From Candidatus Rokuibacteriota bacterium (GTDB lineage Bacteria; Methylomirabilota; Methylomirabilia; Rokubacteriales; JACPHL01), in assembly GCA_016188625.1 (NCBI GenBank), contig JACPHL010000115.1, positions 1 to 33,153 on the forward strand: a stretch of 33,153 bases of DNA. The letters are read 5' to 3'. Made by a program: the position numbers and the translations under genes. Of the stretch, positions 21,082 through 21,241 are shown piece by piece; positions within the stretch are counted from its first letter, which is position 1; each line of letters opens with the position of its first letter. The notes beneath the pieces are model-generated. The model made no database searches and had not been told where the DNA came from. It saw only the letters and a program-made list of their open reading frames with translations.

Positions 21082-21109
21082 TTGACAAATCGCCGGGCGC
21101 GGGTATGTT
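21082..21109 (+). promoter_or_regulatory. Promoter of the pyr operon
   Basis: A perfect -35 TTGACA (21082-21087), 16 nt spacer, and -10 TATGTT (21104-21109; four of six) stand in the gap after the response regulator. The expected transcription start, near 21116, is just before the PyrR binding loop. Confidence 0.75.
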
Positions 21110-21120
21110 TGTGTTGATGG

Positions 21121-21155
21121 CTCCTTTAAGTGGGCCCGGCGAGGCCCATAAGGAG
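21121..21155 (+). promoter_or_regulatory. PyrR RNA-binding loop that sequesters a Shine-Dalgarno sequence
   Basis: The RNA folds as CTCCTT (21121-21126) paired with AAGGAG (21150-21155), a purine-rich asymmetric bulge (TAAG against a single T), then TGGGCC / GGCCCA closing the hexaloop CGGCGA (21137-21142). The PyrR consensus from Bacillus is ARUCCNGNGAGGYU with hexaloop CNGNGA. Here CCCGGCGAGGC fits the central part of it fully. The 3' arm of the lower stem is the Shine-Dalgarno of the leader peptide at 21161, so binding of PyrR with UMP would hide it. Confidence 0.8.
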
Positions 21156-21160
21156 AGGCA

Positions 21161-21241
21161 ATGATCCCGATCCGAGATCCGCACGCGGCACCCCCTCCCG
21201 TCGGGGAGGGGGTTTTTTCCTGCCTGGGGGCCGCGTCGTGA
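21161..21241 (+). CDS. pyr operon leader peptide (26 aa)
   Basis: An ATG at 21161, 5 nt after AAGGAG, opens a 26-codon frame [20 protein letters not shown] then CLGAAS. The frame runs straight through the terminator hairpin, and its TGA (21239-21241) overlaps the pyrR start codon as GTGA. Ribosomes translating it would melt the terminator and be delivered to pyrR. The peptide itself shows no recognisable domain; its role is probably in the act of translation, as proposed for the Thermus pyr leader. Confidence 0.7.
21191..21218 (+). terminator. Intrinsic terminator (attenuator) of the pyr leader
   Basis: A perfect 9-bp GC stem CCCCCTCCC (21191-21199) / GGGAGGGGG (21204-21212) with a GTCG loop is followed by T6 (21213-21218). 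It lies inside the leader-peptide frame, 19 nt before pyrR, which is the arrangement of an attenuator rather than of an end-of-gene terminator. Confidence 0.92.

What the first reader, a model, noticed from the sequence alone, without database searches (positions are those of the whole stretch)
21082..21241. pyr leader in which a PyrR binding loop hides the ribosome site of a leader peptide that runs through an attenuator
Seen: promoter, a hairpin with hexaloop CGGCGA fitting the PyrR consensus CNGNGA, lower stem CTCCTT/AAGGAG whose 3' arm is the Shine-Dalgarno of a 26-codon frame, an intrinsic terminator inside that frame, and a GTGA overlap of the frame with pyrR. Known: PyrR binds such loops in Bacillus; in mycobacteria the loop covers a ribosome site; in Thermus a leader peptide is part of the control. 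Inferred: with UMP, PyrR stabilises the hairpin, the leader is not translated and the terminator forms; without it, ribosomes melt the terminator and pass to pyrR. One compact leader would thus join translational repression and attenuation.
Basis: partly seen in the sequence, partly recalled or inferred. Interest (0 to 1): 0.82.

Follow-up and report, generated by a model that had tools for sequence, protein, structure and literature searches.

The report
Pyrimidine operon switch using leader peptide
In front of the pyrimidine-making genes of a soil bacterium of the Rokubacteria group lies an RNA switch in which a hairpin for the sensor protein PyrR hides the start signal of a tiny gene, so that whether ribosomes read the tiny gene probably decides whether the operon is transcribed; the same layout recurs in many relatives and in Thermus-like bacteria, where such a model was proposed long ago.

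Summary
In the window alone the ORF is not significant (all three frames are open); comparison carries the case. The hairpin covaries across 58 distinct sequences, occurs once per genome and always at pyrR. Of 79 relatives with enough upstream DNA, 45 have an ORF through the terminator region (mode A), most ending on the pyrR start. In 34, one clade nested inside mode A, leader and terminator are gone and the same hairpin-SD directly precedes pyrR (mode B). A Bacillus-type antiterminator is detectable in the Bacillota control but not here; SD plus leader ORF shows the reverse (39/40 here, 25/25 Deinococcota, 2/22 Bacillota). Best explanation: PyrR-UMP locks the hairpin, blocks leader translation, and the terminator forms; without it ribosomes melt the terminator and deliver translation to pyrR. 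This is the model proposed for Thermus in 1997 (from memory), so it is a new member of a known, little-tested kind. Additions: multi-phylum comparative support, one A-to-B conversion, possible Rho-type leaders in Acidobacteriota. No experiment shows function.

The parts
21082..21109 (+). sigma-70-type promoter, TTGACA-16-TATGTT
   Evidence: promoter-like site scoring at least 9 of 12 upstream of the hairpin in 74 of 79 relatives against 1.7% of shuffles
21121..21155 (+). PyrR-binding-loop hairpin: lower stem 21121-21126/21150-21155, bulge TAA 21127-21129, upper stem 21130-21136/21143-21149, hexaloop CGGCGA 21137-21142
   Evidence: RF00515 49 bits; covariation; 55.9 bits with model R1
21150..21155 (+). 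AAGGAG, Shine-Dalgarno site of the leader ORF and 3' arm of the lower stem
   Evidence: SD hybrid -9.3 kcal/mol; 5 nt before the ATG
21161..21241 (+). leader [29 protein letters not shown], stop overlaps pyrR start (GTGA)
   Evidence: frame kept in 45 relatives
21190..21219 (+). intrinsic terminator (10-bp stem, 4-nt loop, T-tract) inside the leader ORF
   Evidence: starts between 22 and 44 nt after the leader start codon in the relatives scanned
21238..21786 (+). pyrR, bifunctional regulator / uracil phosphoribosyltransferase
   Evidence: NF003549 2.3e-78, above cut-off; close to the T. thermophilus and B. caldolyticus PyrR chains
21815..22753 (+). pyrB, aspartate carbamoyltransferase, first target gene downstream of pyrR
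   Evidence: NF002032 6.5e-123
22764..24065 (+). pyrC, dihydroorotase; followed by carA, carB, pyrF, pyrE on the same strand by reading of the translations
   Evidence: TIGR00857 2.2e-131 above cut-off; ORFs

Best explanation
It is a PyrR-controlled, ribosome-dependent transcription attenuator of the pyr operon. Step 1 (inferred from family knowledge): at high UMP, PyrR binds the hairpin at the 5' end of the nascent RNA and holds it closed. Step 2 (anatomy shown, effect inferred): closing the lower stem buries AAGGAG, so the 26-codon leader is not translated. Step 3 (inferred): with no ribosome on the leader, the G+C-rich hairpin plus U-tract inside the leader forms and RNA polymerase terminates before pyrR. 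Step 4 (inferred): at low UMP, PyrR lets go, a ribosome starts on the leader and covers or melts the terminator, transcription continues, and the ribosome ends on the GTGA overlap where pyrR translation starts. The ribosome takes the part that the antiterminator RNA plays in Bacillus. In one derived clade of the same order, loss of leader and terminator turned the same hairpin into a direct translational repressor of pyrR.
For: Hairpin: one covarying element per genome, only at pyrR; lower-stem pairs 2-34 and 4-32, which contain the SD, change on both sides in 19 and 16 sequences. Leader frame: kept in 45 of 45 mode-A loci with lengths of 16-54 codons; 39 of 40 scanned have both an SD at or below -6 kcal/mol in the 3' arm and an ORF through the terminator 5' arm, Deinococcota 25/25, Bacillota control 2/22. 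Among the ten mode-A Rokubacteriales genera the stop lies in a four-base ATGA/GTGA overlap with pyrR, including two species whose leader is 54 codons long and one where ATG-TGA follows the SD and a GTG two bases on supplies the kept frame. pyrR's own SD is weak (above -4 kcal/mol) in 20 of 45 loci while no leader SD is; where the leader stops inside the terminator (7 loci) pyrR has its own SD. No antiterminator signal here: terminator 5' arm paired upstream 0.46 observed and 0.46 shuffled, against 0.77 and 0.56 in Bacillota. Precedent that a translating ribosome disables an intrinsic terminator in a pyr leader: E. coli pyrL (PMC5021804).
Against: No transcript, binding or reporter data for this phylum. 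The open frame alone is weak evidence in G+C-rich DNA: the product of per-genus chances is about 6e-4, and the other two frames are open in 10 and 11 of 15 genera. In seven relatives the leader ends 7-12 nt before the end of the terminator stem, so full read-through and coupling to pyrR are not general. The RF00515 score is below the family cut-off. The ribosome must initiate before polymerase has made about 60 nt more, and nothing here shows a pause that would allow it. The relatives are not independent of each other.
Confidence: 0.83

Rival explanations
1. Bacillus-type attenuation: the hairpin is an anti-antiterminator and, without PyrR, an antiterminator RNA structure forms between its 3' half and the terminator 5' arm; the leader ORF is accidental.
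For: Same binding hairpin and a downstream terminator; RF00515 aligns across both. AAGGAG has partial complementarity to C-rich terminator arms.
Against: Terminator 5' arm pairing upstream equals that of shuffled arms (0.46 against 0.46) while the Bacillota control exceeds them (0.77 against 0.56). Leader ORF plus SD is near universal here and rare in Bacillota.
Confidence: 0.06
2. Translational control only, as in Mycobacterium: PyrR blocks leader translation, and pyrR is shut off by loss of coupling; the terminator is incidental or constitutive.
For: Mode B relatives work with no terminator at all; pyrR lacks an SD of its own in many mode-A loci.
Against: A hairpin with a U-tract lies within the leader region of the mode-A loci (found by scan in 40 of 45, the other 5 read by eye) and was lost together with the leader in the mode-B clade. 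In seven loci pyrR has its own SD and no overlap, so coupling cannot be the switch there.
Confidence: 0.08
3. UTP-sensing attenuation as in E. coli pyrBI: polymerase pausing at U-rich leader sequence, not PyrR, sets whether the ribosome catches up.
For: Leader ORF runs through an intrinsic terminator as in pyrL (PMC5021804).
Against: No U-run precedes the terminator in the window. The PyrR hairpin with its SD is the most conserved part, and pyrR is the first gene of the operon.
Confidence: 0.03
4. The leader encodes a peptide with a function of its own, or a stalling peptide.
For: In the genus that contains the 2,752,854-base genome the pre-terminator codons show a lower nonsynonymous/synonymous ratio in the leader frame (0.5) than in the other frames (0.79, 2.12).
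Against: Peptides differ between genera apart from the part dictated by the terminator; lengths range 16-54; start codons vary.
Confidence: 0.03

Closest known systems
Thermus (strain ZO5) pyr operon attenuator as proposed by Van de Casteele et al. 1997 (J Bacteriol 179:3470; recalled, paper not held)
   Same: Leader upstream of pyrR; PyrR; a translating ribosome instead of an antiterminator keeps the terminator open. In genomes of the same phylum as Meiothermus rufus, 25 of 25 scanned loci have the hairpin with SD in the 3' arm, a leader ORF through the terminator and a stop overlapping pyrR.
   Different: Different phylum; the overlap with pyrR is mostly 4 nt here, mostly 11 nt there.
Mycobacterium smegmatis pyr operon, PyrR-dependent translational repression (Fields and Switzer 2007, doi 10.1128/JB.00803-07; title seen, content recalled)
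   Same: Hairpin for PyrR covers a ribosome-binding site. The 34 mode-B relatives have this layout.
   Different: In the window the covered site belongs to a leader ORF with a terminator inside, not to pyrR.
Bacillus subtilis pyr attenuation (PMC7430163)
   Same: Binding loop with terminal loop, upper stem and internal bulge; PyrR with UMP/UTP favours the terminator.
   Different: No antiterminator detectable; ribosome-dependent.
E. coli pyrBI / pyrL attenuator (PMC5021804)
   Same: Translation of a leader through an intrinsic terminator prevents termination.
   Different: No PyrR; in E. coli UTP-dependent polymerase pausing is the sensor (recalled).

Membership tests
PyrR binding site (RF00515) | Score at or above the Rfam gathering threshold | tested here: not met
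   49.0 bits against 54; six relatives in the class do pass
PyrR binding site (RF00515) | Hexaloop CNGNGA, upper stem, 5' internal bulge, lower stem | tested here: met
   loop C1, G3, G5, A6 invariant in 58 distinct sequences
PyrR binding site (RF00515) | PyrR binds this RNA | not testable with these tools
   needs a binding assay
Thermus-type ribosome-dependent PyrR attenuator | SD of a leader ORF inside the hairpin's 3' arm | tested here: met
Thermus-type ribosome-dependent PyrR attenuator | Intrinsic terminator inside the leader ORF | tested here: met
Thermus-type ribosome-dependent PyrR attenuator | No antiterminator structure | tested here: met
   with Bacillota as positive control
Thermus-type ribosome-dependent PyrR attenuator | Repression by uracil through leader translation | not testable with these tools
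   needs reporter or transcript data
Bacillus-type PyrR antitermination | Antiterminator competing with hairpin and terminator | tested here: not met
   0.46 observed and 0.46 shuffled
Mycobacterial-type PyrR translational repression | Covered ribosome site is that of pyrR itself, no terminator | tested here: not met
   window has leader ORF and terminator; met in 34 relatives
PyrR protein | Curated PyrR equivalog model above cut-off | tested here: met
   NF003549 261.8 bits against 138

The most novel reading that the evidence does not exclude
The SD-in-hairpin plus leader-peptide switch is a widespread form of PyrR control outside Bacillota. It is modular in evolution: the downstream effector can be an intrinsic terminator (window, Thermus-like genomes), possibly a Rho-loading C-rich leader (some Acidobacteriota), or nothing, when loss of the leader makes it a direct translational repressor (once in Rokubacteriales, and apparently again in one genome of the Thermus-like set).
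Probability: 0.45. Interest if true: 0.62.

Novelty: new member of a known kind. Interest (0 to 1): 0.52.

Why it matters
PyrR is a textbook attenuation protein, but the textbook mechanism (an antiterminator RNA) appears not to be what this phylum and the Thermus-like genomes use. If right, one RNA element is shown in two output modes inside a single bacterial order, with one inferred conversion and close relatives on both sides of it to compare. That makes it testable how an attenuator becomes a translational repressor. It also gives comparative support to a model proposed for Thermus from one sequence.

Tried and rejected
Whole-window Rfam scan at gathering cut-offs found nothing; only a permissive scan of the leader showed RF00515. 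RF00515 cannot be used to count the mode-B loci: it includes the terminator and found no match in their genomes. My first automatic hairpin detector demanded a perfect upper stem and missed class relatives that have a mismatch; counts for the class therefore come from the pattern. My terminator scan missed 5 mode-A loci; in most of them a hairpin followed by T8 is plain by eye. Frame openness alone was tested and found weak. Papers: Thermus 1997, Mycobacterium 2007, a pyrimidine-regulation review and Bonner 2001 are not held under the identifiers tried, so those comparisons rest on memory, reference lists and reviews. Papers found with PyrR and Rokubacteria gave no sign of treating this regulation (titles and abstract openings only). 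Considered and rejected: Bacillus antiterminator, UTP-sensing pyrBI type, stalling peptide.

Full report
WHAT IS THERE. The window carries a pyr operon (pyrR, pyrB, pyrC, then carA, carB, pyrF and pyrE by reading) preceded by a 160-base leader. Rfam's PyrR family matches with 49 bits, E 5e-6, slightly below the curated cut-off.

WHERE IT IS FROM. The genome is an 84% complete assembly of 2.6 Mb. The complete 2,752,854-base genome G066 in the same class has the size that I recall for Methylomirabilis oxyfera. The window is therefore in Methylomirabilota, order Rokubacteriales, in a family of its own in this sample.

THE HAIRPIN. pyrR was found in 85 of 99 relatives and the upstream DNA of about 80 was read. 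Every locus with enough upstream sequence has the hairpin: 79 loci, one of which (L011) has a shortened loop. On an ungapped alignment of 58 distinct sequences, 95.2% of pair cells are standard pairs. Ninety-one cells are changed on both sides, against 35 in shuffles, and sliding the partner by one base drops pairing to 50-56%. The lower stem, which contains the SD, covaries at two pairs (19 and 16 sequences changed on both sides). A model built from this alignment finds one strong site per genome in nearly all of the 80 genomes (of 95 in the class) with a match, at pyrR where the gene position is known; a second identical-scoring copy in G013 and in G053 lies on another contig. True sites score 43 bits or more, the next matches 23 or less. 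So PyrR most likely has a single target here, its own operon. These sequences match the model by construction; the point is the gap and the absence of other sites.

TWO OUTPUT MODES. Mode A (45 loci) has an SD in the 3' arm, a start codon 3-8 bases on, and a leader ORF that reaches at least into the terminator. Mode B (34 loci) has the same hairpin and SD, but the start codon belongs to pyrR itself and no terminator is present. On a PyrR tree mode B is a single clade (support 99/98) nested among mode-A lineages; one change suffices in all bootstrap trees. Since the rest of the class and the Thermus-like genomes are mode A, the direct repressor is most simply derived by loss of leader and terminator. 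The tree rests on one 177-column protein. In the Thermus-like set one genome (L189) also shows the direct layout, which suggests that the conversion has happened elsewhere too.

IS THE LEADER REALLY READ? In the window alone this cannot be said: all three frames are open and 90% of shuffles stay open. The comparison is better. (1) The leader frame is open in all 15 mode-A genera; the other two frames in 10 and 11. In 12 of 12 loci of the Methylomirabilis-type genus only the leader frame is open. (2) In all ten mode-A Rokubacteriales genera the leader stop forms a four-base ATGA or GTGA overlap with pyrR, although leader length runs from 21 to 54 codons. With a random register that would be expected at most one time in three per genus. 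(3) In L003 the first ATG after the SD is followed at once by TGA, yet a GTG two bases on opens the kept frame. (4) Where leader and pyrR overlap, pyrR often has no good SD (20 of 45 weaker than -4 kcal/mol; leaders: none). In the seven loci where the leader stops inside the terminator, pyrR has its own SD. (5) In the Methylomirabilis-type genus the ratio of nonsynonymous to synonymous differences before the terminator is 0.5 in the leader frame, 0.79 and 2.12 in the others (small sample, related sequences).

RIBOSOME OR ANTITERMINATOR? In Bacillus the hairpin competes with an antiterminator (PMC7430163). I folded each leader up to the terminator loop and asked how much of the terminator 5' arm pairs upstream. 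In 22 Bacillota controls it is 0.77 against 0.56 for shuffled arms; in 40 Methylomirabilota 0.46 against 0.46; in 25 Deinococcota 0.45 against 0.50. The reverse test, SD in the 3' arm plus ORF through the terminator 5' arm, gives 2/22, 39/40 and 25/25 in the same order. This double contrast is the strongest evidence that the ribosome replaces the antiterminator. That a translating ribosome can do so is shown for E. coli pyrL (PMC5021804).

HOW IT WORKS. With UMP, PyrR should hold the hairpin closed and hide AAGGAG; the leader is not read, the terminator forms and the operon is off. Without it, the ribosome enters, covers the terminator (which starts 22-44 nt after the start codon in all scanned loci), and hands over to pyrR at the overlap. 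The anatomy is shown; binding, ligand effect, attenuation and timing are inferred.

COMPARED WITH THE KNOWN. From memory, the Thermus ZO5 paper of 1997 proposed this mechanism: no antiterminator, a translating ribosome instead. It is not in the held library. In genomes of the phylum of Meiothermus rufus the layout is nearly universal among those scanned. They are unnamed; those fetched were the ones most like the query alignment headed by the solved T. thermophilus PyrR, and Rfam's family rings in the named control Thermus composti. The window is thus a new member of a known, thinly tested kind. Similar layouts occur in some Omnitrophota, Acidobacteriota and Chloroflexota; the last look mixed, some with Bacillus-like antiterminators.

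A SIDE LEAD. In some Acidobacteriota (L140/L207, L204, L218) the hairpin and a leader ORF overlapping pyrR are present without an intrinsic terminator. The leader is C-rich and almost G-free (C 42-49%, G 0-9% over 45 bases), the extreme of its 3.5-kb locus in two of the three. That composition is typical of Rho loading sites, so leader translation may be guarding against Rho. This is a lead, not a result.

LIMITS. No experiment; assemblies are metagenomic; relatives are not independent; the hairpin finder and terminator scan were home-made and missed some loci, as listed.

Noticed in passing
L140/L207, L204, L218 (Acidobacteriota), region between hairpin and pyrR: PyrR hairpin with leader ORF overlapping pyrR but no intrinsic terminator; leader is C-rich and nearly G-free with short repeats, like a Rho loading site.
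   Followed up: partly
L189 (genome G183, phylum of Meiothermus rufus); L213 (Acidobacteriota); L267, L280 (Chloroflexota): Hairpin and SD directly in front of the pyrR start, no leader: apparently separate cases of the direct layout.
   Followed up: partly
L017 and L018, about 200 bases upstream of pyrR: Leader stretched to 54 codons by an insertion containing a further inverted repeat (CCCTCTCCCC...GGGGAGAGGG), yet the frame still ends in GTGA with pyrR.
   Followed up: no
window 28140-28175: carB changes frame: the protein reads ...[11 protein letters not shown] in one frame and resumes as ...[27 protein letters not shown] in another, apparently with about 20 residues missing; an assembly error or a broken gene.
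   Followed up: partly
window 25183-25903: Between carA and carB lie two small ORFs; the second (25538-25903) is a nucleotidyltransferase-domain protein (PF18765, PF01909), odd company in a pyr operon.
   Followed up: no
window 17422-21043: NtrY-like histidine kinase and sigma-54-type response regulator end about 40 bases before the pyr promoter.
   Followed up: no
genome G053, contigs C42 and C253 (L005, L032): One assembly holds both a mode-A and a mode-B pyrR locus; reported contamination is 6%, so a mixed bin is likely.
   Followed up: no
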